NCBI RefSeq assembly: GCF_047495875.1 | Contig: NC_092460.1 | Span: 12,452,520 to 12,516,519, forward strand | Source of the DNA: Pithys albifrons albifrons | Lineage: Eukaryota > Chordata > Aves > Passeriformes > Thamnophilidae | Reading direction: 5' to 3' | DNA: 64,000 nt | In this document: piece after piece, positions 1 through 60,394 of the stretch | Numbering within the stretch: position 1 is the first letter of the stretch | Layout of the letters: each line of letters opens with the position of its first letter | Made by a program: the position numbers and the translations under genes | The notes under the pieces: generated by a model | Told to the model about the DNA's origin: nothing | Databases searched by the model: none | What the model saw: only the letters and a program-made list of their open reading frames with translations

Positions 1-195
1 TCTTTAGTACACAGGGCAGTAGTTCAGAGCATTTCTGTTGGAGCCAATCATGTTGTGGGGGATAAGAGATTATGAATGATAGGAAGAATATGAAGGATAG
101 ACCTTCTGACTTGATTGCTGTCTTGCTCATGAGTTTTACAAACAGCAGCATTTTCAGAAGTGTTTAAGGAAATCAATTTGTTCTTTTTTGGGCAG

Positions 196-644
196 AGGGC
201 CCAAAGTTATTTTGTAGATCAGTTGATCTCAGTGAAGAACAAGATGGTTGGGAAGATAGACGAAGATTATTGATTGAGGTGAGTATTTAACATCTCTTCC
301 TTGGTAACTGTGGGCATGAGGAGGGAACACGGCTGCTTATTTGCATGAAGAATTAAGTTCAGGACCTCTAGAAAGGCTGGCAATTTTGTAATTGCCGAGG
401 AACTAAACTTCTGTAGTATACAAGTGTGCATAACATCATGTTATGATGTCCCGTCAGGTAAATTAGTGAATCTCTGTAATGTACAGGACCAGTTACTTAA
501 GTGTATGTAAAAATACAGGTGAATCTAGAAACTTGTATTAATCATTATTATTTTTTTCATAATTTTATGTTGTATTTTAAATATTTCCAGGAATGCAGGA
601 AGAAGCATAAGGATGCAAAAAGGAAAGTGAAAGCAAAACAATAA
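196..644 (+). CDS. NOL8: NOL8 C-terminal end (last two exons of an upstream copy)
   Basis: These are the last two coding exons of a NOL8 gene that begins left of the window. The exons are 196-278 (83 nt, donor GTGAG) and 591-644, ending with the basic C terminus [17 protein letters not shown] and TAA. The basic ending matches the conserved vertebrate NOL8 C terminus. They are identical in layout to the last exons of the complete gene at 40880-40962 and 41275-41328. This shows that a full-length NOL8 copy also precedes PHF7L-A here, so the array has at least two full-length NOL8 copies. Nothing in this piece is broken. Confidence 0.9.
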
Positions 645-1359
645 ATATTTCTTATTTTACTGATCAGAAATGTTTCATATTTCTTCTTTGAAGAAGCTGC
701 CAAACAATGTTACTTTCAAAACCCTTTCAAAAATCTAACAGGAAAGAATATTGGCAAAAACTGCTAAGACTTTGTTTCTAAATAGGGACATGTTTATTTT
801 CAGTTTGATGTTTGTTCCATGTTTTGGGGTTTTGTATGTATGTATATACATATAGAAATACATATATACATATGGTTTAAATGTGACGTGCTGCTTTGTT
901 CGATTTCTGGTAATTATATCATATAATGAAGATCTTCTGCTGTGTCCTCTGGCTCCACTGCTGAAGGCTGAGAAAGAACAGATACCTCTTTCTCTGTAAG
1001 ATTATATAACTTGTATTCTGCCTAACATAATAGAGAGCATATTTTAGATTGATTTACAAATATTTGGACTGTGTTATTTCTAGGGTGAAAGTTTCCCAGA
1101 AGTTAATGAAAATACATACATAATAGACATATATATATACCCATCTATATATGCGTATGTGCATAAATATGTATGTATATTTACATGCATATATAACAGG
1201 TTTATGAAATGAATAATTTGTATTTGTTCACAGAGCTGAATTTTTACTTTTTTACTGAGTTTTTATATTTATAAATACAGGGGACAGATGTTGCTGGTGT
1301 TGTATGCTTGGTATGAAATGAATATCTATTCCTGTATGTTATGTCCACTTAGACCTGTG
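645..1359. other. NOL8 3' flank, AT-rich
   Basis: 3' UTR and flank of NOL8. An AATAAA overlaps the stop region near 640. Two short TA/CA-rich runs lie at about 836-872 and 1115-1200. A sequence starting near 1084 is the point to which the broken psi-NOL8 last exon has been joined. No gene is seen. Confidence 0.6.
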
Positions 1360-1512
1360 CTGCAGAGGCTCTGCCAAGGCCATCCTGGGCACCTGCTGCC
1401 AGGCCCTGCCTGGCCCCAGCCCAGGGACACCCGAGTGCTTTGCCTTTTGCCTGTGTCCAGAGCAGTAGAACTGTCACATTCCCAGCTGTCTCTCAGGCTG
1501 GACCAAGCACTG
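1360..1512 (-). pseudogene. Inverted PHF7-like exon 8/intron 8 relic
   Basis: Read on the minus strand this matches exon 8 and the start of intron 8 of the PHF7-like gene: the region around 4395-4550, with the WECGSCA-type exon, its donor and the following CAGG-rich intron. It is a short, diverged fragment with no flanking exons and is not coding. A longer inverted relic of the same piece lies at 16202-16530. Confidence 0.7.
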
Positions 1513-1880
1513 GACTAAGGTAGTGCAAGTAAGATTCAGCCTCTATTGCAAATAAATCAAGGTAAAGTGACTCATTTGAAACAGCAGGAAAGTAACTGTT
1601 GATACATCTGTCAAATCAGTAACTTCTATATCAAATTTTCACCTCAAACAAGTAATTTTAAGAGATTATAATGTGTTTAAATTTGTACGTGTGGCTGGGC
1701 TTCACCAATGAAGATTTGGGAAGGGCTCTCCTCATGTGGGTGTGCCCTTCCAGCCTGCACAGTGGATTTTTTTGGGGAGGCACAGGGTGCGCAGAACTGG
1801 CCCCACCGTTTAAGTCCTAAGGATCATCTGCCATGGCCGAGCAAGCTTGGACTGTGACAGTGAAGTCCTCAGGACTACAA

Positions 1881-1986
1881 CCTACAGCCCCTGATGTTCC
1901 CAGGAGGTCTCCCATCCAAGTACTAACCAGGACTGACCCTGCTAAGCTTCCGAGATCTGATGGGATTGGATGTTAGGGTGGAATTT
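1881..1986 (-). pseudogene. 5S rRNA-like pseudogene
   Basis: On the minus strand about 106 bases follow the vertebrate 5S rRNA: GATCTCGGAAGCT is nearly intact, followed by the AGCAGGGTC and GGTTAGTACTTGGATGGGAG blocks (the internal promoter region), then a decayed CCTGGGAA and the GCTGTAGG end. The 5' third is diverged, and no T-run terminator follows directly. It is more likely a dead copy, or the head of a 5S-derived SINE, than an active gene. The same element is at 42565-42670. Confidence 0.82.
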
Positions 1987-2099
1987 AACTGCCCTCCTGT
2001 TTAAACATAGTATTAATAACTGTCCTCACAGCTTTGAATTTAAGGTGGGGGCAAATTATGCTTTCTATTATTGTTGACATAAGACCTGCCTCGGAACCT

Positions 2100-2523
2100 C
2101 GGCTGCCGAGGGGAGGTGTCACAGTGGGTGGTGGGGGCTGAGGCCAATCCCGCCCATATTCCAGGTGCACGCTGCTGATGTCACAGTGGCCACTGTGACC
2201 TATGGGGCCAAGGGTACAAAAGGGAACTCTGGGCTCAGGCCCTGTGTCAGTGTTACCTGACAACGCGAGGAGAAGGAAGAGGAGGATAGAGCTGCCCAGG
2301 GAGAGCCTCACAGTTTCAGGCTCTCAGCCTGTGCTGCAACGTCGTCCACCTCGCACTTCTCAGAATCAGCAAAGGAGCATCTCAAGGTGACTGTGGTGTT
2401 CCTTGACTGGACAAGAGAAGGGGGAGAGGGGCAGAAGCCTCTCTCGTATTTCAGAGCCAGCGGAGAAGAGTCTGGAGCAGACCTCAGTGTTCCAGTGTCA
2501 GGGTCTGACCGCTGAGACGCACC
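2100..2523 (+). promoter_or_regulatory. Putative PHF7L-A promoter and 5' UTR
   Basis: A GC-richer block just upstream of the start codon. It contains a perfect 20-bp palindrome at 2180-2199 (GTCACAGTGGCCACTGTGAC) and a weak TATA-like TACAAAAG at about 2215. A likely non-coding exon ends at 2386 (CTCAAG then GTGACT). The same layout precedes the B copies, where the palindrome is damaged. The transcription start is not determinable from sequence. Confidence 0.45.
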
Positions 2524-5500
2524 ATGTCAGACAGGACAGAGGAAGCCCCCGGAGTGAGTGACCCAGGTGAGACCAAAGTGCCCCTCCCACAGCCGGGCAG
2601 AGGGGCTGTCAAGGATGGCCAGTGCAGGGCTGGAAGTGGTGGCAGGGGAGGCAGGAGCCATCCAGCCATCTCGGGGCTGGGGCCCTCCTTTGCTCAGCAA
2701 GCCGGGCCCAGCTGGGGCAGGAGGCACCTGCTGGGACACCTGTGCCCACAATGGCCCATCCTCTCCAAGGCCTCCAGCCCTGTCCTTCATCCAGGCAGTC
2801 ACAGAGCAGTCACAGAGCAGCCCTTGGGGTCAATCCCACAGGGATGCTGTCCCCAGCCCCGCAGAGGTGCCATTCCTGGTGCCATTGACTCTCTCCCTTT
2901 CAGCATGCCTGCTGTGTAAACGATCAGAGGCTGACCCGGACATCTGTGGGAAAAAACTTGAGAGATGTGGGCTCTGTGCCCACATGTTCTGCCTGGTGAG
3001 TTGCTCTCTGGGTTCCCTCCAGCTTTCCAACACGCAGTCCCTGCCACTCTGTCCTTACGAGCGCATCGTCTTTCCTGCAGTTTTTTGCCACTCTCCTTCA
3101 TCAGCAAGGGAATGAGCGGGTAGGATTCCTGGGCTTTCTCCCAAAGGATATCCTACTGGCTGTCCACCGGCTGGCACAGAAGGTGAGAGCCTGACATGAG
3201 CGGGGAGATTTGTACCAGGCGAGGTTTGCTGGAGCTTAGCCCAGACCCCAAGAAAGGAAGACCTGCCCTTGCCAACAGCTCTGGGACCAGGAGGAGACCC
3301 CAGGGCTGCTGCTGATGGGGCTGTTGTGCTCTTTCCAGCGCTGCTTCATCTGTGGCCAGAGCGGGGCCACCATCACCTGCTGTGAAATGGAGTGTGACCT
3401 GAGCTTCCACCTGCCCTGTGCCAAGGAGGCTGGCTGTGTCACCCAGTACATTACACCGTACAGGTACCTCCTTCCCCCTCCTCTCCACCACCAGGGAGGA
3501 GCCCAGCACTTCTCACCCCACCCATCTCTTGTGTCCCCAGCTCCTACTGCCCTGCACACAGACCACAGCAGGCAGTGGAGGCGACTCTCGAGCCAGGCAC
3601 CCAATGCCTCATCTGCATGGAGCCTGTGGAGGACAGAAAGACTTTCAAGACCATGGTGTGCCCAGAGTGCAAAAGCACCTGGTTCCACAGGGACTGCATC
3701 CAAGTAGGAGTAGTTTCCTCACACCCAGGGGAACAGCAGGGGCTCAGCAGCACCAGGGCCTCACTCAGCGCTGCTTGTTTCTCCTGCAGGGACAGGCTCT
3801 GTCTGCAGGTATTTTAGCCTTCCAGTGCCCCCTCTGCAGAGGCCATCGGGAATTTCTCATGGATATGTTCAATGTGGGGATCCGAATCCCCTTCAGGTTG
3901 GTGTCCTTCTGCCTGGCTCACAACACAGGAGGCTGCAAGTCTTGGCCCTGCACTGCTTTGGGAGGGCCACGTTCAGCTTCTCACAGGAGTTGGAAATGGC
4001 ACAGTGGAAAGGGCAGGGACTCACCTGCCAGATGCCAGGGCAGGCGGAGCTCATCAGTTTTCCTTTTCCCTGTCAGAAAGCCATTATGGGAGGAAGGCAA
4101 TGCATTCAGGGACCTGGGAGTGAGGCACCACCAGTGCAATGCCAGAGAGTGTCTTTATCCAGGAGGCAGAGAGGAGGCAGAGGAAGAGGGGTAAGTTGCC
4201 AGAGGGGGGCCGTGGGGGGCTCTGCAGAGGATCTGTGCCTTGGCAAGGGCTGAAAGCAGAAGGAGCCTGAAGGAGAGCTTGGCCAGATATCCCATGCTTT
4301 TGACACTTTGTCCTCACGGCCATCAATCTTTTTGCTTCCCCAGGCCCTGGGAAATGCTCCTGTGCAGCTCCTGTGCTGCCGAGGGTACCCACAAACGCTG
4401 CTCCAGCCTGACAGACAGCGCAACCAGCTGGGAATGTGGCAGTTGTGCTCCTCTGGACACAGGTAAGAGACAAAGCACACAGGTGCCCCTGGGCTGGGGC
4501 CATGCAGGGCCTGGCATCAGGTGGCCAGGATGGCTTGGCAGAGCCTGTCTGCTCCAGGAGGGCTGGGGGCACTGCTCTGGCCCAGCCTGCCTTGGGCCTG
4601 GGGAGCCCTTGACCTTCCCACTTCCCCTTACAGCCCCCGGGAATGAGTCAGAGCTGGACATCCCTGACCTGGGCACACAGGACAGCAGCTCCTCCACCAG
4701 TCCTGGGCCTGACCTCACACAAAATGGCTCCTGCCAGCAAGGTCAGGCCCCAGATCCACAGGGCCAGCGCAGAACTCTGCGTGACAGAACCCATGTGCCA
4801 ACACCAAGTGCTGGGCAGCGCCAGCCCAGGCAGAGACAATCGGGGACATCCTGCAGGCAAAACTGCTCCCGCCTGCAACATCGGACCCCAGATCCACCTA
4901 TCGGGTCCACAAGTCCCCATGACAGGAGCCGCGTGAGACCATCAGGTATTGCGAGTCGCACACGTAGCCAGGAGGAAACAGGGACATCGCGCAGGCAAAA
5001 CTGCTCCCGCCTGCAACGGCAGACGCCAGATCGACCTGGTGGGTCCAGAGGTCGTTGTGACAGAAGATGTGTGAGACCACTAAGTTCTGGGAGTAGCAGC
5101 TCCAGTCAGGAAGAAACAGAGGCATCCCACAGGGGAAAACGTCCCCACCTGCAATGGCAGACCCCAGATCGATCTCGCAGGTCCAGAAGTCGACGTGACA
5201 GAAGGCGTGCGAGATCACCAAGTGCTGGGAGTCGCGGCTCCAGTGAGGAAGTGACAGAGACATCCCGCAGGGGAAAACGTCCCGGCCAGCAACGGCAGAC
5301 CCCAGATCGATCTCGCAGGTCCAGAAGTCGACGTGACAGAAGGCGTGCGAGATCACCAAGTGCTGGGAGTCGCGGCTCCAGTGAGGAAGTGACAGAGACA
5401 TCCCGCAGGGGAAAACGTCCCGGCCAGCAACGGCAGACCCCAGATCGATCTCGCAGGTCCAGAAGTCGACGTGACAGAAGGCGTGCGAGATCACCAAGTG

Positions 5501-7509
5501 CTGGGAGTCGCGGCTCCAGTGAGGAAGTGACAGAGACATCCCGCAGGGGAAAACGTCCCGGCCAGCAACGGCAGACCCCAGATCGATCTCGCAGGTCCAG
5601 AAGTCGACGTGAAAGAAGGCGTGCGAGATCACCAAGTGCTGGGAGTCGCGGCTCCAGTGAGGAAGTGACAGAGACATCCCGCAGGGGAAAACGTCCCGGC
5701 CAGCAACGGCAGACCCCAGATCGATCTCGCAGGTCCAGAAGTCGACGTGAAAGAAGGCGTGCGAGATCACCAAGTGCTGGGAGTCGCGGCTCCAGTGAGG
5801 AAGTGACAGAGACATCCCGCAGGGGAAAACGTCCCGGCCAGCAACGGCAGACCCCAGATCGATCTCGCAGGTCCAGAAGTCGACGTGACAGAAGGCGTGC
5901 GAGATCACCAAGTGCTGGGAGTCGCGGCTCCAGTGAGGAAGTGACAGAGACATCCCGCAGGGGAAAACGTCCCCGCCAGCAACGGCAGACCCCAGATCGA
6001 TCTCGCAGGTCCAGAAGTCGACGTGACAGAAGGCGTGCGAGATCACCAAGTGCTGGGAGTCGCGGCTCCAGTGAGGAAGTGACAGAGACATCCCGCAGGG
6101 GAAAACGTCCCCGCCAGCAACGGCAGACCCCAGATCGATCTCGCAGGTCCAGAAGTCGACGTGACAGAAGGCGTGCGAGATCACCTAGTGCTGGGAGTCG
6201 CGGCTCCAGTGAGGAAGTGACAGAGACATCCCGCAGGGGAAAACGTCCCGGCCAGCAACGGCAGACCCCAGATCGATCTCGCAGGTCCAGAAGTCGACGT
6301 GACAGAAAGCGTGCGAGATCACCTAGTGCTGGGAGTCGCGGCTCCAGTGAGGAAGTGACAGAGACATCCCGCAGGGGAAAACGTCCCGGCCAGCAACGGC
6401 AGACCCCAGATCGATCTCGCAGGTCCAGAAGTCGACGTGACAGAAGGCGTGCGAGATCACCAAGTGCTGGGAGTCGCGGCTCCAGTGAGGAAGTGACAGA
6501 GACATCCCGCAGGGGAAAACGTCCCGGCCAGCAACGGCAGACCCCAGATCGATCTCGCAGGTCCAGAAGTCGACGTGACAGAAGGCGTGCGAGATCACCA
6601 AGTGCTGGGAGTCGCGGCTCCAGTGAGGAAGTGACAGAGACATCCCGCAGGGGAAAACGTCCCGGCCAGCAACGGCAGACCCCAGATCGATCTCGCAGGT
6701 CCAGAAGTCGACGTGACAGAAGGCGTGCGAGATCACCAAGTGCTGGGAGTCGCGGCTCCAGTGAGGAAGTGACAGAGACATCCCGCAGGGGAAAACGTCC
6801 CGGCCAGCAACGGCAGACCCCAGATCGATCTCGCAGGTCCAGAAGTCGACGTGACAGAAAGCGTGCGAGATCACCAAGTGCTGGGAGTCGCGGCTCCAGT
6901 GAGGAAGTGACAGAGACATCCCGCAGGGGAAAACGTCCCCGCCTGCAACGGCAGACCCCAGATCGATCTCGCAGGTCCAGAAGTCGACGTGAAAGAAGGC
7001 GTGCGAGATCACCAAGTGCTGGGAGTCGCGGCTCCAGTGAGGAAGTGACAGAGACATCCCGCAGGGGAAAACGTCCCCGCCAGCAACGGCAGACCCCAGA
7101 TCGATCTCGCAGGTCCAGAAGTCGACGTGACAGAAAGCGTGCGAGATCACCAAGTGCTGGGAGTCGCGGCTCCAGTGAGGAAGTGACAGAGACATCCCGC
7201 AGGGGAAAACGTCCCCGCCTGCGACATCAGACCGCGGATCCATCCAGCCGGTCAAGAAGTCGTCATGACAGAAGCTTTGTAAGACGACCAAGTACTGGGA
7301 GCTGCAGGTCCCGCCAGGAATCGTCAGGGGGATCCCGCAGGCAAAACCGCTCCCTCCAACGTCAAAACTCAGATTCATCCAGCCTATCCAGAAGGCCCCA
7401 CCCCAGAAGCTGCCCGCCTGCACCGAGTGCTGGGAGGCGAAACCGAAGGGAGAACACGTTGGGAACATCCCGCAGGCGAAACCACTCCCGCCAGCAGGGT
7501 CGTTCCTGA
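2524..7509 (+). CDS. PHF7: PHF7-like PHD/RING protein with RS-repeat tail (PHF7L-A1)
   Basis: Nine exons join in phase to 1246 codons: 2524-2566, 2904-2995, 3081-3182, 3339-3463, 3541-3703, 3790-3896, 4077-4190, 4344-4462 and 4634-7509. All introns are GT-AG. Residues 15-288 follow PHF7/G2E3 exon by exon: an extended PHD finger (CLLC, C-x2-C-x-H, then RCFICGQSGA and FHLPC), a RING/PHD-like centre (CLICMEP, FHRDCIQ, CPLC), and a third Cys-rich module (CNARECLYPGG, CSSCAAEGTHKRCSSL, WECGSC). PHF7 family members read H3K4 methylation and ubiquitinate histones in male germ cells; that role here is inferred. Exon 9 adds a tail of about 960 residues, rich in Arg and Ser, most of it 46-residue repeats. 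Ordinary PHF7 is only about 380 residues. The start is the first ATG of exon 1, as in all copies. Confidence 0.85.
5163..7232 (+). repeat. 138-bp coding minisatellite (15 units, RS repeats)
   Basis: Fifteen units of exactly 138 bp, counted from the CCCAGATCGATCTC block (5163, 5301, up to 7095). Each encodes 46 residues with DRSRRSRSRR, RARSPSAGSRGSSEE and TSRRGKRP segments. Units differ at a few codons: D/E after SRR, R/K in DRRR or DRKR, and G/R before QQ. Degenerate older units flank the array on both sides (4800-5162 and 7233-7500). The unit length is a multiple of three, so copy-number change keeps the frame open. Confidence 0.97.
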
Positions 7510-7662
7510 AATCCATGCAGCCAGTCAAGACGTTGCCCTGGTTCCCGAAATCCACGCAGCCAGTCAAGACCTTGCCCTGACAGAAGACGTGAGAACACAA
7601 AGTGACAGGAGTTGTGCTCACCAGTGGGACGGTGAGACAGGGACTCACCACTGGCAGGCACC

Positions 7663-8284
7663 ATGTTAGAGGGCAAGGAGGAAGCCCCCGGAGTGAGTGA
7701 CCCAGATGAGACCAAAGTTCCCCTCCCACAGCCGGGCAGAGGGGCTGTCAGGATGGCCAGTGCAGGGCTGGAAGTGGTGGCAGCGGAGGCAGGAGCCATC
7801 CAGCCATCCCGGGGCTGGGGCCCTCCTTTGCTCAGCAAGCCGGGCCCAGCTGGGGCAGGAGGCACCTGCTGGGACACCTGTGCCCACAATGGCCCATCCT
7901 CTCCAAGGCCTCCAGCCCTGTCCTTCATCCAGGCAGTCACAGAGCAGCCCTTGGAGTCAATCCCACAGCCCCGCAGAGGTGCCATTCCTGGTGCCATTGA
8001 CTCTCGCCCTTCCAGCATGCCTGCTGTGTAAACGATCAGATGCTTACCCAGATATCTGCAGGAAAAAACTTGAGATGGGCACTGTGGCCACATGTTCTTC
8101 ATGCTGAATTGCTCCGTGGGCTCCCTCCAGCTTTCCAAGACACAGTCCCTGCCTCACTGTCTTTACGAGCACATTGTCTTTGGCCAATCTCCTTTATCAG
8201 CAAGAGAACGATTGGACAGGACTCCTGGCCTTTCTCCCCCCAAGCAATACCCTACTTGTTCTCAACTGGGTGGCCCAAAACTGA
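7663..8284 (+). pseudogene. Broken PHF7-like 5' fragment
   Basis: The start codon region (MLEGKEEAPGVSDP) and exon 1 resemble PHF7L-A, but the donor GT is now AT (CCAG then ATGAG at 7706). An exon-2-like stretch (CLLCKRSDAYPDIC) at about 8016-8106 has indels and runs into a stop. Exon-3-like DNA follows and is cut at about 8285, where NOL8 sequence begins. No functional product is expected. Confidence 0.8.
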
Positions 8285-11200
8285 AGACCCCAAAACTGCT
8301 TTCCTAAAAGATGACGATGAATGTAAGCAATAAAGGCAGAATGTGAAGCTAATACATGTGAGAACAGGAAGACAGGCCTTCTGGAAGATAAGGAGCTTTG
8401 TCTTCATGCTGCTGCTTCAAAGGAACCTACAAGAGACAAACAGGAACAGGACAACCAGAGGAGGCTGGCGGCTCTGGAGGAGAGACACAGGGAGAGAGAA
8501 CTCCAGAAGAAACTCATTCAAGGAGCACTTTCGAATCTGGTAATTACACTCACAACTTTTATCTGAATAGTCCAGAGTACAAGGAAAAGGGTAATTAATG
8601 TATGTGAATTAAGATTCCTAAAAATCATAGTCTGGATTTTCTGATACATTGCCAGTTTTGAGTATATATAAAATCCTGCATACCTCGTCCCTGGAATGCC
8701 TCTGGAGTTGCAGGAGGAATAGCAGAGGTCATGGAAACACCTTTTAGATACTTCTGTATGACTGCAGCAAGTACTTGCTGTGTTTGACCTGACATTTCCC
8801 CCTTTTCTAGGACGGCCAGCCAGCAGGGAAGCACAAACACATCCTATTCGATTCAGACACGGAAAATGAGACGTTGAAAAAAGACGCAAGTTTGGGAAAT
8901 ATGCCTGGAGAAGTAAGTGTTATTAGGCAAAAGCCCTGTGTGACCATGCCTTTTGTTCTGAAGATTAGATTTCCTAGTGAAGTGCCAGAGAAATGTAGGT
9001 AAGTTTTGAATTAACATCAGACAGGTTTGAAAGAACTTAACCATTCATCTGAGAAAGCTTGAGAGCTTGGAGAATTTGGAAGGAGTTTGAGATTGGTATA
9101 GAAGGTATTCTAACTTAGAAGAGAAAGAACTTCTGTATAATTAGTGTTGAAATTCCTCTGCTTTTAGGCAAAGGCTGGGGAGGAGATTGGGCTTGAGCAG
9201 TACAGAAGTATTCTGCTCTTTCTGAGACTGGATGAACTGCTAAGGCAGTATCTTGTTTTTGTTGAGCTCCAAAGAACTGTGTAAGGCTTCGTCTTTACTA
9301 TCATTAGCAGACTCCTCATGATTTTACTGCCATGGTTTAGTACAATTTAATACTTTTTTTTTCTCAAATAGAACTTCTTACCTATGACATTTTTTAATCG
9401 CATCTCTGCTAAAACTTTAAAGCATTGGGTTTGCTTTTGTTGGGATTTTTCCTTGTAATTGTAGTGAGATTAGGACCATTATCGTTATTTAGCCATTGAT
9501 ATTTTTAAGACGATCTTCCTACCTTTTATGTGGATATTTTTCCTGTGGTCAAATTGAACAATCATAATTTTAATTTTATAATTATAAACCAGAATTGCAC
9601 AAGGTGTGTATACAAGGTAAGATTGGCAGTAGATTGATCAGTGCTGGAAATGCACAGGGTTGTGCAGGAAATCCACTTTTTAAGGTAAACTGGAAAGTAC
9701 ACGCACAAAATTGGTACTGATTTATATTGTCAGATGTAAATAACCTCCTCCTTGTGTTTTTCCTTTTTGTTTAACAAAGGATAAATCTGCTCCCAAGCCT
9801 TCAGGCAAACTGTTTGAGAGCAACGAGAACGAGCAAGACAACACGGACGATGAACGATTCATAATTTAACCACAGTTTGAAGGCTAAGCTGGGGAAGAAG
9901 TGAGTGAACCCATCACTGGAATTTAGTTTTCCTCTGAGAGTCTATAGGGCCACTTCAGAGGAACAGAACTGGTAGGCTTGTATTATTGCTGAGTATGGTT
10001 TTTATCAATTTACAATAGAATTCCCTTCAACAGAGGAAAGAGTGGCCATGGAGGAAATAATGTGTGGTGTTATCTTTGTATCCAAAGAAATTCCTGGAGA
10101 AGGCCCCAGGAGCTAAAAATTGTTGGTATGTTCTAATTAAGTCTGAAAAAAAGGGGATTGAACGTTGCTGATTTCCTCCTCCAGTGCTTAAGAGCACTTG
10201 TTTCATTTGTTTAGCTCCTGAGGCTGCAGTCCCGATTTGGCACCGATGAAAGATTCCGCATGGAAGCCCGATTCCTGGAGAGTGACAGTGAGGAGGAAGG
10301 TAAAGCTGCCCATACTTCCTGGTTACTGGTAGTAATGGAGCCATATCATGGAGCTTCAGCTTTTGAAGCACCTTATGGCCTCCTTTGGCTTCTTTGGTGA
10401 TCCCTTAAAAGAAAACCACCCACCTCTGCTGTGGCTCTGCATGGGAAACACCAGGGGTGGCTGTGCTTTCTTAAAGGTGTATGCTGCAAAAGTATTTGGA
10501 ACAGCTGAGTGAGGCACATGTGCCTAATAAAACAACATTTGAGACTATTTTTAATACAGCATGATATCAGAATGTGTTTATCCACATTGAAAAACTGGGT
10601 AAGCGGTGACTTAGAAAAACCCCCTTTTGGATCATTATATTCATTTAAACTGTTTGTTTTGTAGCCATCCTGCAGCCTGTGGCTGATTTGGCAGTCTTAA
10701 GTAGGGTCATTTTTTTTCTTTAGCAGCAGAAGGCAGAAAAGCTGAAAATAGAAAAAGTTTGAATATCCACCCCCAAGAAAAAGAAATTAACCCAGTTTTC
10801 AGGATTCAATTTCTTTCTGAAACTTAAATTTAGCCTCACTCTGCTATTCCCTTCATTGCTTTCATGTGATCTTCTGTAGAGTATCAGCAGTGGCAGAGGG
10901 GTTGCAGTTACATGACAGCAGCAGGAAACATGTTAAATACCTGATCTGGCCTTCACATGAAATAGATGCCCAGAACTGTTCTAACCCAAGATTTTCTACA
11001 GTGCAAGGGACAAAGTCTCTGAGTAGCTTTTAGATAAAGGAAGTGATGTGTTGATAGACGTGAGCTCTGCTAGTACTGTAGTGATACTATGCATCAAATA
11101 TCACAGGCTTAGCAGGGAAAATATAATGTATTTCTTGTTATCTTAGCAGAGACAAAGAGCTTGAAGGCAGATGAGGAAGACGAACTTGCTGCAGAGAAAA

Positions 11201-14200
11201 AGAAAACTCTGCAGATACTGGGAAGCCTCTTGAAAATCAACCTGGAACAGCCTAAGCCAAGTAAAACAGCAACAAGTGCCAAGAAATTCAAGTATGAATC
11301 ATCTGCCATCAGTGAAGGAGTTTTAGGGAGGCTTAAGTTTTGCCGGTGTTTTCTAACCAAAATTTCTGCCTAGATGGCTGAGGAAAGTACTTCCTTTCTT
11401 GTGTGTATTTGAAGTCAGTATTTAATGGAATTCCCAGGCACTGACTAGCAGGGACTTTCTAAATGTCAATTACATTTTGGAGAGTTTTTGGTGAAGAAGC
11501 CAATTTGAATTTGTATCCTACTGTAAAGGTTTGGGGTAGCTTTCATTTGAGCCTTTAGAGTGTCTCATGGTTTCTCTTTGCCTTTCTATTTTCTTAGAGA
11601 CATTAATGCCCTCCGTTACGATCCCACCAGACAGGACCACACAGTTTTTGAAAGGAAACCAAGTACTACAGAAAAGGAGAGGTAATATTACAGCTTGGTA
11701 ACTATAGTTGTGATGTTTCTCCCCTTAGAGAGAAGCCTATGGCAGCAGACTGAGTTTGAAACTACGCAGACTGCTATTTTCTCTTTAGTCCTCCCTGTGA
11801 TTGCAGAAATCAATATACAATAGGAATTGTGAGCACTAAAACCGGCATGCAGTGTCATCTTTTCTTTGTAGTCCATCTACTCTCTGCATGCCATTTTCTG
11901 TCCTCACTGAAGGTGAGAAAGGTCAAGTCATGGACTTGAAGATTTGAGAAGTTTTCAAGAGACAAGTTTATTAGCTCTTATCCTGTGAAAAGGCATATTA
12001 GCTCTTAACATTTCTTTTGCCAGAAGAGAAATCTGTCCTAAGTATCTTCATTTATGAACTACCACATGTTAAGTGAAAAGTCCCTTAATGATGTGGGTAA
12101 TAAAAAGGAGGCTTGTTCCTGCCTTTAGAATCAAAGCTCAGATGTTTCCCCTGCACTGCTCTCTCCCTTAAAAGTGAACTCCTCATCAATGTGCATGGCT
12201 GAGTTTAGGAAAACATCAAGAGCCAGGTGGCTCTTTCTTTTAAAAACAGCTGTGTTGTGTTACTGTCCTCCAACTATCCCATTTCAGTAAAGCTAAAAGG
12301 AAGAAGAAGAAGAAAGAAGAGAGTGAGAAACTGCCTCAAGTGTCTGAAGAAATCTATTATGATATTGCTGCTGATTTAAAAGACTTATTTGGATCTTCAA
12401 AGAGCCAATCAGAGAAACGTGAGGGAATACCCTGGGACAAAGATGATGCAGAGGACTCTGCCCCACCTGACCATTTGGAACCTGTCTCTGGGAATAACAC
12501 AGCTCAGGAGCCGAGTGGTTTCAAGTTTTCCTTCTTTGGAGACACAGAGAAGTCAGGTGTAAAAGAAGGTAAGAGCAGGACAGTGCAATTTCTAGTGAAT
12601 GGCTCATGTCAGGCACTGTGCAGGACTACGGTGCCTAGGAATTCAGAATCCAGGGCATTTTCAGAGGCAAAAGTGAGTAATGAGGCAGAATCATTATGAT
12701 CTTCAGTTACACTTGCCAGGATTGTGGTAGCTCAGCTTGCGCCCCAGGAATCTTGAAAGGGATGTTTTGAGAAAGAACGATTATTTATTTGTTTTTTTTA
12801 AACAGTGATGGACGTTGTTGTCATCCCCTACATTTCTCAGACAGGGAAAAAGGTGATATGCCAAGTCAAAGTTTCATACAACCCAATAAGATTTGAAATC
12901 AAAGGAGTGATAATGGGAGTATTATGAGCAAAAGCAAATCCGGAGTTGACACCAAGAACATTCAAGATTGCTTTATTATTTACTTAATTTTCTTATTGTA
13001 CCTTTAGAAAATTGAAACTGCACGACCCATGACTATAGGGGATATAAGTGTTACACACTCAAGATTAAAACATACTGAATTAAGTCAGTCAGTAAGGTAG
13101 GAGACAAAACAAACCATGTGAAGTTAAATGAAAGATTTAAAACAAAAGAAACCAGAAAAAACCAAGCCCCCCACATTTTTACTGACTTTCAGAAAGGATT
13201 CAGTGTTCTGAATGCACTAATGAAGGTTTCAGGATATGAAAGAGACCCCCAGAACAAAGTGAAAAATACCTGAGCCGAGACGTAGTTCAGAAAGCCCAAG
13301 AGGGGAGGTTTCCATCCTTCTTAAATCTGCTTTTCCAATGTAAGTTCTTCACTGGGAAGTAGGGTTTTTTGCTGGCAAGTAGAGGAATAATCTGATTTTT
13401 TATTTCAATTGTGATAATCTTGCAGAGCCCTACATCCTTGAAACAATAAAACCTGCAAAAGTCACATGGCAAGAAGATCCACGTTTCCAGGACAGCAGTT
13501 CTGAGGATGATGATGAGCCAGAGGCATCAGAAATTGAAAAGGATCAAGAAATGCAAGTTGTATTTGTTTTCTATTTGGTTGTAGTAATTTGCTGCTGTGA
13601 GAATATTAATAGCAGCACTCAGGTCCTGGGAAACTGCTGTCTTCATTCCACATCTCTGAGCAACAGAAGTTATCCTGGAAAACCATTCCTTGCTGCACAG
13701 AGTGTAACAGTGAAACATCCCAACAGCCCATTTGCTTTGACCTTGAGTATAAAAATATGAAAGCTGAGTTTGTGGTTGAACACTGGAGAAATTAAGTGGG
13801 TAATTTTGGTTCAACCCAAACCAGTTTTGGTTTGGCCAAAAGTCAGAGACGTAGTAAATTTTCTTTTATAAAAGGGTCTTTTTTATAGGAGACCGTATTT
13901 GGTTACTGTGGAGGAATGTTCTTCCATGCATTCTGTTTCTCTGAAGCACTACAGCTTTAACTTGCATTAATGGAATTTGACAGTAACTTTCTTGATGTTA
14001 AAGTTTCCTTGTGTTTGTCCAGGTTTCTTTGCTTGCCACAAAGAGAAAGTACAAGATTTTTCTTCTTCTCCAAAGACGATGAACGACTGAGAGGTACAAC
14101 AGAACTTACTCACTGTCACTCCTTTTTTGGTTTCTTTCAAAAGTCTTACTGAAAGTCAGGGAAGAAGTCCTGTCTAGTTATTTGTTCTGTAACACAGGTG

Positions 14201-15555
14201 AGAGGTTTAAGGAAAAAAATAAATTGCAAGTTTTCATTCGTATTTGTGGTCTAAATTGAGGTAGAATCCCATGACAAACTGCTGGTAACAAATACGCTGA
14301 ACATCTGTCTTGCTTCCATTTTTTTCAGAGAATTGCCTAATATGTACCTGGCCTTTTAGGGCTTACCAAAAAAAAATCACAAATGCCTTTCAGGCATATA
14401 TATCATCATTAATTTTTTCCTCTCCTTCTGGTGTTACTATTCATAGTGTCGAATACTCTTATTAGCCACTTATGTCCACATCGTTCTTGATTCTAATTAA
14501 TGTGGATTTTTTTTTCTTCTGAATATAGTGAATTTTGTATTTAAAAACAAACAAAACAGCAGCAAACATTCACAGCCTCGAATGGTTCCACAGACCACAA
14601 CAAGAATTGCTTGTGGTATCTTATGCAGTAACTTATCAAGACAGTCTTAAATAATGTTTTTTTCTTGAGACATATGAGGTAACGGTCATGAACTGTCTTG
14701 CTGTGTTCATACAATTAGTGCACTGAAATCTTCCAGCCTGTCTGATTTACAGGCCCTGTTGAAAGTGAGACCTCAGTCCTCAGCAGGCATGAATTTTCTT
14801 GGGAGATGTGGGGTAATGGTGCTGAGCTCTTAATGAAACAGGTGCAATTTCACTGCAGTTCCTATCTTGGCATATTAACTGCTGCTGCCTTTTGTTTTTC
14901 TTAGTACACAGGGCAGTAGTTCAGAGCATTTCTGTTGGAGCCAATCATGTTGTGGGGGATAAGAGATTATGAATGATAGGAAGAATATGAAGAATAGACC
15001 TTCTGACTTGATTGCTGTCTTGCTCATGAGTTTTACAAACAGCAGCATTTTCAGAAGTGTTTAAGGAAATCAATTTGTTCTTTTTTGGGCAGAGGGCCCA
15101 AAGTTATTTTGTAGATCAGTGGATCTCAGTGAAGAACAAGATGGTTGGGAAGATAGACGAAGATTATTGATTGAGGTGAGTATTTAACATCTCTTCTTTG
15201 GTAACTGTGGGCATGAGGAGGGAACACGGCTGCTTATTTGCATGAAGAATTAGTTCAGGACCTCTAGAAAGGCTGGCAATTTTGTAATTGCCGAGGAACT
15301 AAACTTCTGTAGTATAAAAGTGTGCATAACACCATGTTATGATGTCCCGTCAGGTAAATTAGTGAATCTCTGTAATGTACAGGACCAGTTACTTAAGTGT
15401 ATGTAAAGATACAGGTGAATTTAGAAACTTGTATTAATCATTATTATTTTATTCATAATTTTATGTTATATTTTATATATTTTCAGGAATGCCAGAAGAA
15501 GCTTGAAAGTTTCCCAGAAGTTAATGAAAAGTTTCCCAGAAGTATATGTATATAA
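8285..15555 (+). pseudogene. NOL8: psi-NOL8, truncated 3' half of NOL8
   Basis: It starts inside the large NOL8 exon (homologous to about 33513) and keeps all later introns. Exon-like blocks are 8285-8539, 8811-8912, 9780-9899, 10215-10299, 11150-11291, 11598-11681, 12288-12568, 13426-13552, 14023-14093, 15093-15175 and 15487-15555. Lesions: a 2-base loss near 8330 shifts frame to a stop, and the 9780 exon has an in-frame TAA at 9867-9869 where the complete gene has AAG. The last exon has lost the basic C terminus and is fused to sequence normally 3' of the gene. Exons from 10215 onward remain open, so a short transcript is possible. Introns are nearly identical to the complete gene, so the copy is recent and DNA-mediated. 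Confidence 0.88.
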
Positions 15556-16195: not shown

Positions 16196-16201
16196 TGTCT
16201 A

Positions 16202-24082: not shown

Positions 24083-24100
24083 TGTCCCGCTGGGGTGCCA
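24083..24100 (-). other. Retroviral primer-binding site
   Basis: Minus-strand TGGCACCCCAGCGGGAC lies four bases from the inner end of the right LTR. It starts with TGG, as tRNA-complementary sites do. The tRNA was not identified. Confidence 0.6.
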
Positions 24101-24104
24101 AATC

Positions 24105-43207: not shown

Positions 43208-46200
43208 ATGTCAGACAGGACAGAGGAAGCCCCCGGAGTGAGTGACCCAGGTGAGACCAAAGTGCCCCTCCCACAGCCGGGCAGAGGGGCTGTCAAGGAT
43301 GGCCAGTGCAGGGCTGGAAGTGGTGGCAGGGGAGGCAGGAGCCATCCAGCCATCTCGGGGCTGGGGCCCTCCTTTGCTCAGCAAGCCGGGCCCAGCTGGG
43401 GCAGGAGGCACCTGCTGGGACACCTGTGCCCACAATGGCCCATCCTCTCCAAGGCCTCCAGCCCTGTCCTTCATCCAGGCAGTCACAGAGCAGTCACAGA
43501 GCAGCCCTTGGGGTCAATCCCACAGGGATGCTGTCCCCAGCCCCGCAGAGGTGCCATTCCTGGTGCCATTGACTCTCTCCCTTTCAGCATGCCTGCTGTG
43601 TAAACGATCAGAGGCTGACCCGGACATCTGTGGGAAAAAACTTGAGAGATGTGGGCTCTGTGCCCACATGTTCTGCCTGGTGAGTTGCTCTCTGGGTTCC
43701 CTCCAGCTTTCCAACACGCAGTCCCTGCCACTCTGTCCTTACGAGCGCATCGTCTTTCCTGCAGTTTTTTGCCACTCTCCTTCATCAGCAAGGGAATGAG
43801 CGGGTAGGATTCCTGGGCTTTCTCCCAAAGGATATCCTACTGGCTGTCCACCGGCTGGCACAGAAGGTGAGAGCCTGACATGAGCGGGGAGATTTGTACC
43901 AGGCGAGGTTTGCTGGAGCTTAGCCCAGACTCCAAGAAAGGAAGACCAGCCCTTGCCAACAGCTCTGGGACAAGGAGGAGACCCCAGGGCTGCTGCTGAT
44001 GGGGCTGTTGTGCTCTTTCCAGCGCTGCTTCATCTGTGGCCAGAGCGGGGCCACCATCACCTGCTGTGAAATGGAGTGTGACCTGAGCTTCCACCTGCCC
44101 TGTGCCAAGGAGGCTGGCTGTGTCACCCAGTACATTACACCGTACAGGTACCTCCTTCCCCCTCCTCTCCACCACCAGGGAGGAGCCCAGCACTTCTCAC
44201 CCCACCCATCTCTTGTGTCCCCAGCTCCTACTGCCCTGCACACAGACCACAGCAGGCAGTGGAGGCGACTCCTGAGCCAGGCACCCAATGCCTCATCTGC
44301 ATGGAGCCTGTGGAGGACAGAAAGACTTTCAAGACCATGGTGTGCCCAGAGTGCAAAAGCACCTGGTTCCACAGGGACTGCATCCAAGTAGGAGTAGTTT
44401 CCTCACACCCAGGGGAACAGCAGGGGCTCAGCAGCACCAGGGCCTCACTCAGCGCTGCTTGTTTCTCCTGCAGGGACAGGCTCTGTCTGCAGGTATTTTA
44501 GCCTTCCAGTGCCCCCTCTGCAGAGGCCATCGGGAATTTCTCATGGATATGTTCAATGTGGGGATCCGAATCCCCTTCAGGTTGGTGTCCTTCTGCCTGG
44601 CTCACAACACAGGAGGCTGCAAGTCTTGGCCCTGCACTGCTTTGGGAGGGCCACGTTCAGCTTCTCACAGGAGTTGGAAATGGCACAGTGGAAAGGGCAG
44701 GGACTCACCTGCCAGATGCCAGGGCAGGCGGAGCTCATCAGTTTTCCTTTTCCCTGTCAGAAAGCCATTATGGGAGGAAGGCAATGCATTCAGGGACCTG
44801 GGAGTGAGGCACCACCAGTGCAATGCCAGAGAGTGTCTTTATCCAGGAGGCAGAGAGGAGGCAGAGGAAGAGGGGTAAGTTGCCAGAGGGGGGCCGTGGG
44901 GGGCTCTGCAGAGGATCTGTGCCTTGGCAAGGGCTGAAAGCAGAAGGAGCCTGAAGGAGAGCTTGGCCAGATATCCCATGCTTTTGACACTTTGTCCTCA
45001 CGGCCATCAATCTTTTTGCTTCCCCAGGCCCTGGGAAATGCTCCTGTGCAGCTCCTGTGCTGCCGAGGGTACCCACAAACGCTGCTCCAGCCTGACAGAC
45101 AGCGCAACCAGCTGGGAATGTGGCAGTTGTGCTCCTCTGGACACAGGTAAGAGACAAAGCACACAGGTGCCCCTGGGCTGGGGCCATGCAGGGCCTGGCA
45201 TCAGGTGGCCAGGATGGCTTGGCAGAGCCTGTCTGCTCCAGGAGGGCTGGGGGCACTGCTCTGGCCCAGCCTGCCTTGGGCCTGGGGAGCCCTTGACCTT
45301 CCCACTTCCCCTTACAGCCCCCGGGAATGAGTCAGAGCTGGACATCCCTGACCTGGGCACACAGGACAGCAGCTCCTCCACCAGTCCTGGGCCTGACCTC
45401 ACACAAAATGGCTCCTGCCAGCAAGGTCAGGCCCCAGATCCACAGGGCCAGCGCAGAACTCTGCGTGACAGAACCCATGTGCCAACACCAAGTGCTGGGC
45501 AGCGCCAGCCCAGTCAGAGACAATCGGGGACATCCTGCAGGCAAAACTGCTCCCGCCTGCAACATCGGACCCCAGATCCACCTATCGGGTCCACAAGTCC
45601 CCATGACAGGAGCCGCGTGAGACCATCAGGTATTGCGAGTCGCACACGTAGCCAGGAAGAAACAGGGACATCGCGCAGGCAAAACTGCTCCCGCCTGCAA
45701 CGGCAGACGCCAGATCGACCTGGTGGGTCCAGAGGTCGTTGTGACAGAAGATGTGTGAGACCACTAAGTTCTGGGAGTAGCAGCTCCAGTCAGGAAGAAA
45801 CAGAGGCATCCCACAGGGGAAAACGTGCCCACCTGCAATGGCAGACCCCAGATCGATCTCGCAGGTCCAGAAGTCGACGTGACAGAAGGCGTGCGAGATC
45901 ACCAAGTGCTGGGAGTCGCGGCTCCAGTGAGGAAGTGACAGAGACATCCCGCAGGGGAAAACGTCCCGGCCAGCAACGGCAGACCCCAGATCGATCTCGC
46001 AGGTCCAGAAGTCGACGTGAAAGAAGGCGTGCGAGATCACCAAGTGCTGGGAGTCGCGGCTCCAGTGAGGAAGTGACAGAGACATCCCGCAGGGGAAAAC
46101 GTCCCGGCCAGCAACGGCAGACCCCAGATCGATCTCGCAGGTCCAGAAGTCGACGTGAAAGAAGGCGTGCGAGATCACCAAGTGCTGGGAGTCGCGGCTC

Positions 46201-49200
46201 CAGTGAGGAAGTGACAGAGACATCCCGCAGGGGAAAACGTCCCGGCCAGCAACGGCAGACCCCAGATCGATCTCGCAGGTCCAGAAGTCGACGTGACAGA
46301 AGGCGTGCGAGATCACCAAGTGCTGGGAGTCGCGGCTCCAGTGAGGAAGTGACAGAGACATCCCGCAGGGGAAAACGTCCCCGCCAGCAACGGCAGACCC
46401 CAGATCGATCTCGCAGGTCCAGAAGTCGACGTGACAGAAGGCGTGCGAGATCACCAAGTGCTGGGAGTCGCGGCTCCAGTGAGGAAGTGACAGAGACATC
46501 CCGCAGGGGAAAACGTCCCGGCCAGCAACGGCAGACCCCAGATCGATCTCGCAGGTCCAGAAGTCGACGTGACAGAAGGCGTGCGAGATCACCAAGTGCT
46601 GGGAGTCGCGGCTCCAGTGAGGAAGTGACAGAGACATCCCGCAGGGGAAAACGTCCCGGCCAGCAACGGCAGACCCCAGATCGATCTCGCAGGTCCAGAA
46701 GTCGACGTGACAGAAGGCGTGCGAGATCACCAAGTGCTGGGAGTCGCGGCTCCAGTGAGGAAGTGACAGAGACATCCCGCAGGGGAAAACGTCCCGGCCA
46801 GCAACGGCAGACCCCAGATCGATCTCGCAGGTCCAGAAGTCGACGTGAAAGAAGGCGTGCGAGATCACCAAGTGCTGGGAGTCGCGGCTCCAGTGAGGAA
46901 GTGACAGAGACATCCCGCAGGGGAAAACGTCCCCGCCAGCAACGGCAGACCCCAGATCGATCTCGCAGGTCCAGAAGTCGACGTGACAGAAGGCGTGCGA
47001 GATCACCAAGTGCTGGGAGTCGCGGCTCCAGTGAGGAAGTGACAGAGACATCCCGCAGGGGAAAACGTCCCCGCCAGCAACGGCAGACCCCAGATCGATC
47101 TCGCAGGTCCAGAAGTCGACGTGACAGAAGGCGTGCGAGATCACCTAGTGCTGGGAGTCGCGGCTCCAGTGAGGAAGTGACAGAGACATCCCGCAGGGGA
47201 AAACGTCCCCGCCAGCAACGGCAGACCCCAGATCGATCTCGCAGGTCCAGAAGTCGACGTGAAAGAAGGCGTGCGAGATCACCAAGTGCTGGGAGTCGCG
47301 GCTCCAGTGAGGAAGTGACAGAGACATCCCGCAGGGGAAAACGTCCCCGCCAGCAACGGCAGACCCCAGATCGATCTCGCAGGTCCAGAAGTCGACGTGA
47401 CAGAAAGCGTGCGAGATCACCAAGTGCTGGGAGTCGCGACTCCAGTGAGGAAGTGACAGAGACATCCCGCAGGGGAAAACGTCCCGGCCAGCAACGGCAG
47501 ACCCCAGATCGATCTCGCAGGTCCAGAAGTCGACGTGAAAGAAGGCGTGCGAGATCACCAAGTGCTGGGAGTCGCGGCTCCAGTGAGGAAGTGACAGAGA
47601 CATCCCGCAGGGGAAAACGTCCCGGCCAGCAACGGCAGACCCCAGATCGATCTCGCAGGTCCAGAAGTCGACGTGACAGAAGGCGTGCGAGATCACCAAG
47701 TGCTGGGAGTCGCGGCTCCAGTGAGGAAGTGACAGAGACATCCCGCAGGGGAAAACGTCCCCGCCAGCAACGGCAGACCCCAGATCGATCTCGCAGGTCC
47801 AGAAGTCGACGTGACAGAAGGCGTGCGAGATCACCAAGTGCTGGGAGTCGCGGCTCCAGTGAGGAAGTGACAGAGACATCCCGCAGGGGAAAACGTCCCG
47901 GCCAGCAACGGCAGACCCCAGATCGATCTCGCAGGTCCAGAAGTCGACGTGACAGAAGGCGTGCGAGATCACCAAGTGCTGGGAGTCGCGGCTCCAGTGA
48001 GGAAGTGACAGAGACATCCCGCAGGGGAAAACGTCCCGGCCAGCAACGGCAGACCCCAGATCGATCTCGCAGGTCCAGAAGTCGACGTGACAGAAGGCGT
48101 GCGAGATCACCAAGTGCTGGGAGTCGCGGCTCCAGTGAGGAAGTGACAGAGACATCCCGCAGGGGAAAACGTCCCGGCCAGCAACGGCAGACCCCAGATC
48201 GATCTCGCAGGTCCAGAAGTCGACGTGAAAGAAGGCGTGCGAGATCACCAAGTGCTGGGAGTCGCGGCTCCAGTGAGGAAGTGACAGAGACATCCCGCAG
48301 GGGAAAACGTCCCCGCCAGCAACGGCAGACCCCAGATCGATCTCGCAGGTCCAGAAGTCGACGTGACAGAAGGCGTGCGAGATCACCAAGTGCTGGGAGT
48401 CGCGGCTCCAGTGAGGAAGTGACAGAGACATCCCGCAGGGGAAAACGTCCCCGCCAGCAACGGCAGACCCCAGATCGATCTCGCAGGTCCAGAAGTCGAC
48501 GTGACAGAAGGCGTGCGAGATCACCTAGTGCTGGGAGTCGCGGCTCCAGTGAGGAAGTGACAGAGACATCCCGCAGGGGAAAACGTCCCCGCCAGCAACG
48601 GCAGACCCCAGATCGATCTCGCAGGTCCAGAAGTCGACGTGAAAGAAGGCGTGCGAGATCACCAAGTGCTGGGAGTCGCGGCTCCAGTGAGGAAGTGACA
48701 GAGACATCCCGCAGGGGAAAACGTCCCCGCCAGCAACGGCAGACCCCAGATCGATCTCGCAGGTCCAGAAGTCGACGTGACAGAAAGCGTGCGAGATCAC
48801 CAAGTGCTGGGAGTCGCGACTCCAGTGATGAAGTGACAGAGACATCCCGCAGGGGAAAACGTCCCCGCCAGCAACGGCAGACCCCAGATCGATCTCGCAG
48901 GTCCAGAAGTCGACGTGACAGAAAGCGTGCGAGATCACCAAGTGCTGGGAGTCGCGGCTCCAGTGAGGAAGTGACAGAGACATCCCGCAGGGGAAAACGT
49001 CCCCGCCTGCGACATCAGACCGCGGATCCATCCAGCCGGTCAAGAAGTCGTCATGACAGAAGCTTTGTAAGACGACCAAGTACTGGGAGCTGCAGGTCCC
49101 GCCAGGAATCGTCAGGGGGATCCCGCAGGCAAAACCGCTCCCTCCAACGTCAAAACTCAGATTCATCCAGCCTATCCAGAAGGCCCCACCCCAGAAGCTG

Positions 49201-49297
49201 CCCGCCTGCACCGAGTGCTGGGAGGCGAAACCGAAGGGAGAACACGTTGGGAACATCCCGCAGGCGACACCACTCCCGCCAGCAGGGTCGTTCCTGA
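43208..49297 (+). CDS. PHF7: PHF7-like PHD/RING protein with longer RS-repeat tail (PHF7L-A2)
   Basis: Same nine exons as the first copy: 43208-43250, 43588-43679, 43765-43866, 44023-44147, 44225-44387, 44474-44580, 44761-44874, 45028-45146 and 45318-49297. Together they encode 1614 residues. The PHD and RING-like modules are unchanged in their Cys/His ligands. Differences from the first copy are few in the folded part (for example Leu to Pro after VEAT in exon 5). The tail has eight more 46-residue units. Intact splice sites and frames in both A copies, next to wrecked B copies, suggest that the A form is kept by selection; this is inference. The tail resembles SR-protein RS domains and, loosely, protamines in composition, so nucleic-acid binding is plausible but unproven. 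Confidence 0.85.
45847..49020 (+). repeat. 138-bp coding minisatellite (23 units) in PHF7L-A2
   Basis: Twenty-three units of 138 bp from CCCAGATCG at 45847. Units 3-12 and 13-22 show the same order of variants (G/R before QQ, D/E after SRR, DRKR, and the rare GSRDSS at the end), so a ten-unit block is duplicated. Older degenerate units flank the array. Confidence 0.97.
46123..48882 (+). repeat. Higher-order repeat, two copies of 1380 bp
   Basis: 46123-47502 and 47503-48882 carry identical ten-unit variant strings. A rare CACCTAGTG variant (CACCAAGTG in most units) occurs at 47142 and again exactly 1380 bp later. Confidence 0.9.
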
Positions 49298-57968: not shown

Positions 57969-57974
57969 TGTCTA

Positions 57975-59326: not shown

Positions 59327-60394
59327 ATGTCAGACAGGACAAAGGAAGCCCCCGGAGTGAGTGACCCAGGTGAGACCAAAGTGCCCCTCCCACAGCCGGG
59401 CAGAGGGGCTGTCAAGGATGGCCAGTGCAGGGCTGGAAGTGGTGGCAGGGGAGGCAGGAGCCATCCAGCCATCCGGGGGCTGGGGCCCTCCTTTCCTCAG
59501 CAAGCCGGACCCAGCTGGGACAGGAGGCACCTGCTGGGACACCTGTGCCCACAATGGCCCATCCTCTCCAAGGCCTCCAGCCCTGTCCTTCATCCAGGCA
59601 GGCACAGAGCAGCCCCTGAGGTCAGTCCCACAGGGATGCTGTCCCCAGCCCTGCAGAGGTGCCATTCCTGGTGCCATTGACTCTCTCCCTTCCAGCATGC
59701 CTGCTGTGTAAACGATCAGAGGCTGACCCGGACATCTGTGGGGAAAAACTTGAGAGATGTGGGCTCTGTGCCCAGATGTTCTGCCTGGTGAGTTGCTCTC
59801 TGGGTTCCCTCCAGCTTTCCAACACGCAGTCCCTGCCACTCTGTCCTTACGAGCGCATCGTCTTTCCTGCAGTTTTTTGCCACTCTCCTTCATCAGCAAG
59901 GGAATGAGCGGGTAGGATTCCTGGGCTTTCTCCCAAAGGATATCCTACTGGCTGTCCACTGGCTGGCACAGAAGGTGAGAGCCTGACATGAGCGGGGAGA
60001 TTTGTACCAGGCGAGGTTTGCTGGAGCTTAGCCCAGACCCCAAGAAAGGAAGACCTGCCCTTGCCAACAGCTCTGGGACCAGGAGGAGACCCCAGGGCTG
60101 CTGCTGATGGGGCTGCTGTGCTCTTTCCAGTGCTGCTTCATCTGTGGCCAGAGCGGGGCCACCATCACCTGCTGTGAAATGGAGTGTGACCTGAGCTTCC
60201 ACCTGCCCTGTGCCAAGGAGGCTGGCTGTGTCACCCAGTACATTGCACCGTACAGGTACCTCCTTTCCCCTCCTCTCCACCACCAGGGAGGAGCCCAGCA
60301 CTTCTCACCCCACCCATCTCTTGTGTCCCCAGCTCCTACTGCCCTGCACACAGACCACAGCAGGCAGTGGAGGCGACTCCTGAGCCAGGCACCC
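59327..60394 (+). pseudogene. PHF7: PHF7L-B2, 5' part up to the retrovirus
   Basis: Exons 59327-59369, 59696-59787, 59873-59974, 60131-60255 and a cut exon 5 (60333-60394). Unlike B1, exon 4 is full length (125 nt, GATITCCEMEC present) and exon 5 has no extra base, so the frame is open until the retroviral LTR. There it would end shortly after EPGTL at a TAA in the LTR, losing the RING-like and third modules. The 3' part is beyond the window. Confidence 0.85.

What the first reader, a model, noticed from the sequence alone, without database searches (positions are those of the whole stretch)
4634..7509. PHF7-type reader/ligase fused to a giant Arg/Ser repeat tail
PHF7 is about 380 residues in mammals. 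Here the PHD and RING-like part continues in one exon into a tail of about 960 residues dominated by RS/RR dipeptides with SPSAGSRGSSEE spacers. The composition recalls SR-protein RS domains and protamines. Since PHF7 acts on histones during the histone-to-protamine switch, a tail able to bind nucleic acid or condense could be a new form of this factor. This is the best candidate for an undescribed system in the window.
Basis: partly seen in the sequence, partly recalled or inferred. Interest (0 to 1): 0.85.

Follow-up and report, generated by a model that had tools for sequence, protein, structure and literature searches.

The report
Bird PHF7 gene with repeat-grown tail
In what is very likely an antbird genome, a gene of the PHF7 kind (known in mammals from sperm chromatin) stands in a row of near-identical copies whose strongly positively charged repeat tails have several lengths; the tail itself is an old bird feature, and its extreme growth is the new part.

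Summary
Exon 9 (4634-7509) joins in frame, by canonical splice sites, to eight exons encoding a complete PHF7 module (residues 12-292 against PHF7 8jwj, E 2e-68): 1,246 aa with a 958-aa Arg/Ser tail. The tail is a 138-bp (46-aa) tandem array: 14 nearly identical units between diverged ones. Eight of eight copies examined are intact (970-1,614 aa, 8-22 units); 29 forward and 71 reverse genome hits of a unit word remain unplaced.

The pairing is not new: Arg/Ser tails occur on PHF7-like proteins across birds, with a 46-aa register in passerines and often 86 aa elsewhere. Public gene models that skip the array, dN/dS around 1 and missing RNA data leave translation of the array unproven. Verdict: a real hyper-expansion of a known bird tail, made by unequal exchange or slippage; a new variant of a known kind, most likely a testis chromatin ubiquitin ligase held by a basic disordered tail.

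The parts
2524..4462 (+). copy A, coding exons 1-8 (2524-2566, 2904-2995, 3081-3182, 3339-3463, 3541-3703, 3790-3896, 4077-4190, 4344-4462): PHF7 module, residues 1-288
   Evidence: GT-AG borders and one frame; PDB 8jwj match 12-292, E 2.1e-68; Pfam PF13771 E 2.9e-15
4634..7509 (+). copy A exon 9: complete Arg/Ser tail, 958 aa, with stop codon
5260..7191 (+). copy A array of 14 near-identical 138-bp (46-aa) units inside exon 9
   Evidence: 15 unit starts from 5260 to 7192, all 14 spacings 138
4708..5259 (+). four diverged 46-aa units before the array (the last one differs little)
7192..7506 (+). diverged units after the array, RS frame, to the last sense codon
43208..45146 (+). copy B, coding exons 1-8
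   Evidence: 2 differences in 865 coding bases from copy A
45318..49297 (+). copy B exon 9: 1,326-aa tail with 22 near-identical units; total 1,614 aa
17935..26412 (+). copy C/D: PHF7-like copy split in exon 5 by a ~6-kb LTR element; exon 9 remnant 25762-26412 without the array
59683..60393 (+). copy E: counterpart of C/D in the next amplicon, exons 2-5
8012..8281 (+). degenerate PHF7 exon 2-3 fragment behind copy A (counterpart 49800-50069 behind copy B)

Best explanation
This is an ampliconic member of the bird PHF7-like family. Its N-terminal part is a PHF7 histone-reading ubiquitin-ligase module (shown by sequence, and by a model of a paralogue; activity inferred). Its last exon carries the old bird tail of 46-aa Arg/Ser units. 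In this lineage one unit was multiplied by unequal exchange or slippage, in steps of 138 bp, to 8-22 near-identical copies per gene, while the whole gene was multiplied in ~40-kb tandem steps (shown for eight copies). Most likely the protein is made in male germ cells (inferred from chicken), and the disordered tail, net charge +131 to +292, holds the ligase on DNA, RNA or chromatin, perhaps tuned by phosphorylation of its RS serines, during histone removal (inferred). Tail length would then set dosage and avidity rather than add a new enzyme activity.
For: PHF7 match over the whole module; 111 of 280 aligned positions identical, 24 of 26 Cys of 8jwj kept. In a model of the paralogue P0016 (35-sequence alignment, mean pLDDT 53) Foldseek finds PHF7 8jwj first, E 3.4e-20, and its ePHD part 8jws at rmsd 2.3; tail blocks have pLDDT about 31-45. 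Eight of eight examined copies (A, B, L009-L014) have intact splice sites and frames, 970-1,614 aa, 39.8-40.7 kb apart. Copy B repeats a series of ten units, differing in one listed residue, as unequal exchange would leave. Best lag 46 in 22 of 23 strongly periodic passerine tails (A and B included; the other 92) and 46 or 92 in 0 of 22 such non-passerine tails. A unit profile scores 14.9 bits or more on 38 of 75 tails (35 of 72 without the three Pithys ones) against at most 2.0 in 375 shuffled tails. RS frame alone open in diverged parts. Mammalian PHF7 reads H3K4me, ubiquitylates H2A and H3K14 and serves histone removal (passages of PMC10109108, PMC7141194). The 63 chicken co-orthologues are reported among genes with at least half of their relative expression in testis (passages of PMC6609395).
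Against: No transcript or peptide seen. The two public Pithys models of this gene type (P0017, P0018) skip the array and end in another frame; that alternative-frame end also matches models of Chiroxiphia (P0114), Molothrus (P0050) and Manacus (P0023). Tail units compared pairwise give dN/dS 0.61-1.95 (20 of 21 pairs computable) and no third-position excess (84/68/64 at codon positions 1/2/3, p 0.21). Among the eight copies, outside the array 9 changed codons are nonsynonymous and 1 synonymous, three of the 9 in the PHF7 module; inside the array 7 change types to 2 (102 units). So no purifying selection is visible at residue level. Foldseek's superposition of the whole module is loose (rmsd 16.5).
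Confidence: 0.55

Rival explanations
1. The array is a non-coding minisatellite that the cell splices out: an intron inside exon 9 (5039-7317 in copy A) removes it and the protein, about 510-540 aa, ends in another frame.
For: Public models P0017 (maps exactly onto copy B) and P0018 (carries N270, seen only in L009 among the eight copies) use this GT-AG intron. The same alternative-frame end matches P0114, P0050 and P0023.
Against: Weak acceptor: 6 of the 10 bases before its AG are pyrimidines, against 8-10 in the eight acceptors of copy A (my count). P0018 also retains intron 6 and starts exon 3 late, and P0017 starts inside intron 1, which suggests models made without transcripts. The paralogue P0016 and many passerine proteins read the RS frame to the end.
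Confidence: 0.25
2. The copies are young and decaying: open only because they are recent, with little or no protein function.
For: Copies differ at 11 of 1,703 sites outside the array, so intact frames are expected without selection; changes are mostly nonsynonymous; sister copies C/D and E in the same amplicons are broken or partial.
Against: 8 of 8 keep all splice sites and frames; cysteines of the module kept; RS composition far above the composition-matched expectation.
Confidence: 0.15
3. Assembly artefact: haplotypes or repeats duplicated by the assembler.
For: High identity of copies and variable array length are classic sources of error (general knowledge; no call).
Against: Eight copies in a row with private substitutions and several unit numbers; amplicons in the window 97.5-99% identical, not identical; one contig of 101,864,781 bases.
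Confidence: 0.05

Closest known systems
Bird PHF7-like multigene family (63 co-orthologues in chicken, 38 in zebra finch, 17 in turkey, 6 in duck; passages of PMC6609395)
   Same: Same zinc-finger module, same kind of basic Arg/Ser tail, many gene copies
   Different: Here the tail is 682-1,326 aa with one unit repeated 8-22 times; the profile finds 1-6 units in the database tails it hits at 14.9 bits or more. Vidua P0034 (653 aa, lag-46 identity 0.66) looks like a smaller parallel case
PHF7 of mammals (8jwj, 8jwu, 8jws, 1weq)
   Same: Whole module aligns, 111 of 280 positions identical
SR proteins / SRRM2
   Same: Arg/Ser dipeptides; some bird PHF7-like proteins are named SRRM2-like
   Different: No RRM found; joined to a PHF7 module
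Protamines
   Same: Arg-rich, Ser-containing, link to the male germ line
   Different: 29% Arg, acidic residues in every unit, over 600 aa, joined to a folded module
G2E3
   Same: Related zinc-finger module (recalled); some bird hits carry this name
   Different: No HECT domain found in residues 1-505 or in the tails

Membership tests
PHF7 | ePHD-RING-PHD module over its whole length | tested here: met
   (residues 12-292 against 7-287 of 8jwj); on the paralogue P0016
PHF7 | zinc ligands kept | tested here: met
   24 of 26 Cys and 5 of 12 His of the 8jwj chain kept; a complete RING set C143 C146 C161 C164 H170 C173 C188 C191 can be read, ligand roles recalled. PF13639 scored 25.1 bits, under its 27.3 cut-off
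PHF7 | H3K4me reading and H2A/H3 ubiquitylation | not testable with these tools
   needs an assay
PHF7 | testis expression | not tested
   no RNA data for this gene; chicken relatives only (passages)
SR protein | RRM plus RS domain | tested here: not met
   Pfam finds no RRM in residues 1-505 and no family in the tails of A and B
Protamine | short protein, mostly Arg (recalled) | tested here: not met
   29% Arg, 958-aa tail on a folded module
G2E3 | C-terminal HECT domain (recalled) | tested here: not met
   none in residues 1-505 or in the tails
Bird PHF7-like tail repeat | 46-aa register and unit profile | tested here: met
   the profile was built from units of copy A and P0016

The most novel reading that the evidence does not exclude
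A fast-growing, length-variable basic tail on a tandemly amplified sperm-chromatin ligase: gene copies and tail units are both multiplied because they give a transmission or sperm-competition advantage, making this a tunable, perhaps driving, system for histone removal in birds.
Probability: 0.12. Interest if true: 0.8.

Novelty: new variant of a known kind. Interest (0 to 1): 0.5.

Why it matters
If translated, it shows that a fast-changing tandem repeat of constant register can be built into a chromatin ligase, and that bird PHF7-like genes vary in tail length as well as in number. It offers a natural length series (8 to 22 units, net charge +131 to +292) to test what basic tails do in sperm chromatin remodelling, and it warns that automatic gene models of such genes may be wrong.

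Tried and rejected
Literature searches that gave nothing on the tail: PHF7 + arginine-rich + birds (0 papers), PHF7 + tandem repeat + avian (only the turkey paper), PHF7-like or songbird (15 listed of 11,013, none of the 15 with 'PHF7-like'). Others: PHF7 + passerine (2 papers), PHF7 + germline-restricted chromosome, Pithys albifrons + genome assembly. The chicken duplication paper (Fouchecourt 2022) is not held; I know it from a citation in PMC10360393. Selection tests gave no support for constraint. A profile run without the composition correction was set aside, since shuffled tails scored up to 88 bits. My first exon borders were partly wrong and were corrected. Scripts 71 and 73 failed (incompatible HMMER option) and the analysis was done. 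only waited; searches also waited at their end.

Full report
What is there. The window lies at 12,452,520-12,516,519 of contig C3, 101,864,781 bases, in a 1.14-Gb genome of 53 contigs. Copy A has nine coding exons from 2524 to 7509 with canonical borders and one frame of 1,246 codons. Residues 12-292 align with PHF7 8jwj at E 2.1e-68; 111 of 280 aligned positions are identical, and 24 of 26 cysteines are kept.

The tail. The tail has 958 residues, 29% Arg and 19% Ser, net charge +200. TRF gives a 138-bp period, 16.6 copies, 96% matches. Fourteen units are nearly identical; diverged units lie before and after. Outside the array 313 codons are open in the RS frame alone. Pfam finds no family in the tails of A and B. 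An AlphaFold model of the paralogue P0016 with a 35-sequence alignment has a mean pLDDT of 53: the module is partly well modelled and the tail stays at about 31-45, as for a disordered chain. Foldseek finds PHF7 first, with a loose superposition of the whole module (rmsd 16.5) and a good one of the ePHD part (rmsd 2.3).

The amplicon. Copy B (43208-49297) has 22 units and 1,614 aa. One 36-base word of the unit occurs 141 times forward and 71 times in reverse in the genome. The 100 listed places, all forward, form eight clusters 39.8-40.7 kb apart. I fetched the six upstream ones; with A and B all eight copies are intact. In order along the contig they have 1108, 1154, 1246, 1154, 1154, 970, 1246 and 1614 aa, and 11, 12, 13, 12, 11, 8, 14 and 22 units by a strict pattern. 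They hold 112 of the 141 forward words; 29 forward and 71 reverse are not located. Six further 10-kb stretches near the array (L015-L020) hold none. The amplicon also carries long frames that I take for NOL8 (recalled; Pfam found nothing in the two frames tested).

How it grew. Units vary at few sites, and all spacings in A and B are 138 bp. Copy B contains the same series of ten units twice, with one listed residue changed. That fits unequal exchange or slippage in register. The eight copies differ at 11 of 1,703 coding sites outside the array, so the amplification is recent or the copies are kept alike by conversion (inference).

Relatives. Two protein searches gave 15 and 408 hits, of which 15 and 120 were listed; a third, with the tail, gave one. 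Of the 135 listed proteins plus A and B, 7 had no module-end motif, 18 had tails under 40 aa and 112 longer ones; 51 of 137 passed an RS-rich threshold chosen afterwards, A and B among them. Of 23 strongly periodic passerine tails 22 have a best lag of 46 and one of 92; of 22 such non-passerine tails 14 have 86, two (both Gallus) 67, six other values, none 46 or 92. A unit profile built from Pithys units reaches 14.9 bits or more in 38 of 75 tails, 3 of them Pithys, against at most 2.0 in 375 shuffles. Tails that miss this level under the composition correction include zebra finch P0027 and P0030, Coccothraustes P0036 (0.1 bits) and the chicken ones. Vidua P0034 shows a smaller run of similar 46-aa units (lag-46 identity 0.66). 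So the tail is old in birds, and its hyper-expansion is what is special here. The search with the tail found no other expanded protein, within the length and candidate limits of that tool.

Results against. The public models P0017 and P0018 skip the array by a GT-AG intron and end in another frame, an end that also matches three other passerine models. The acceptor looks weak and the models have other odd exons, so I favour an annotation artefact, but without RNA this is open. Tail units show pairwise dN/dS of 0.61-1.95. The eight copies show 9 nonsynonymous to 1 synonymous changed codons outside the array, and 7 to 2 change types inside. Selection on composition rather than on sites would look like this; so would no selection.

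Function. Reviews say that PHF7 reads H3K4me and ubiquitylates H2A and H3K14 in histone removal (passages). The chicken PHF7 co-orthologues are reported among genes with at least half of their relative expression in testis (passage). The most economical model is a testis ligase whose basic, flexible tail raises its hold on nucleic acid or chromatin with unit number. Shown: module, tail, amplification, intact frames. Inferred: expression, ligase activity, tail binding.

Known or new. Bird PHF7 multiplication is in print for chicken, turkey, zebra finch and duck (passages); the canary genome paper failed to find the zebra finch expansion in canary. The library lacks most subscription journals, so this is weak evidence of absence.

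Noticed in passing
18637-24693 (inside copy C/D); same left junction at about 60395: A ~6-kb element with two LTR-like ends (93.9% identical over 576 columns) and a CACCC target duplication splits exon 5 of a PHF7-like copy; only observed.
   Followed up: partly
1-7354 vs 40685-48037; 4730-22236 vs 46518-64000; 9526-15502, 35322-41290, 51314-57289: Segmental duplication with a 40,684-base offset, plus a ~6-kb block present three times; 97.5-99% identical.
   Followed up: partly
1-650, 8400-9880, 31728-33792: Frames that look like NOL8 (recalled name), partly duplicated, between the PHF7-like copies.
   Followed up: no
27761-28231: GC-rich tandem repeats (periods 17-197 bp), perhaps at a promoter CpG island (guess).
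   Followed up: no
16307-16522 and 58080-58295, minus strand: PHF7 exon fragments in reverse orientation.
   Followed up: no
P0069, P0050: Some passerine gene models read the tail repeats in another frame, keeping the 46-residue period.
   Followed up: partly
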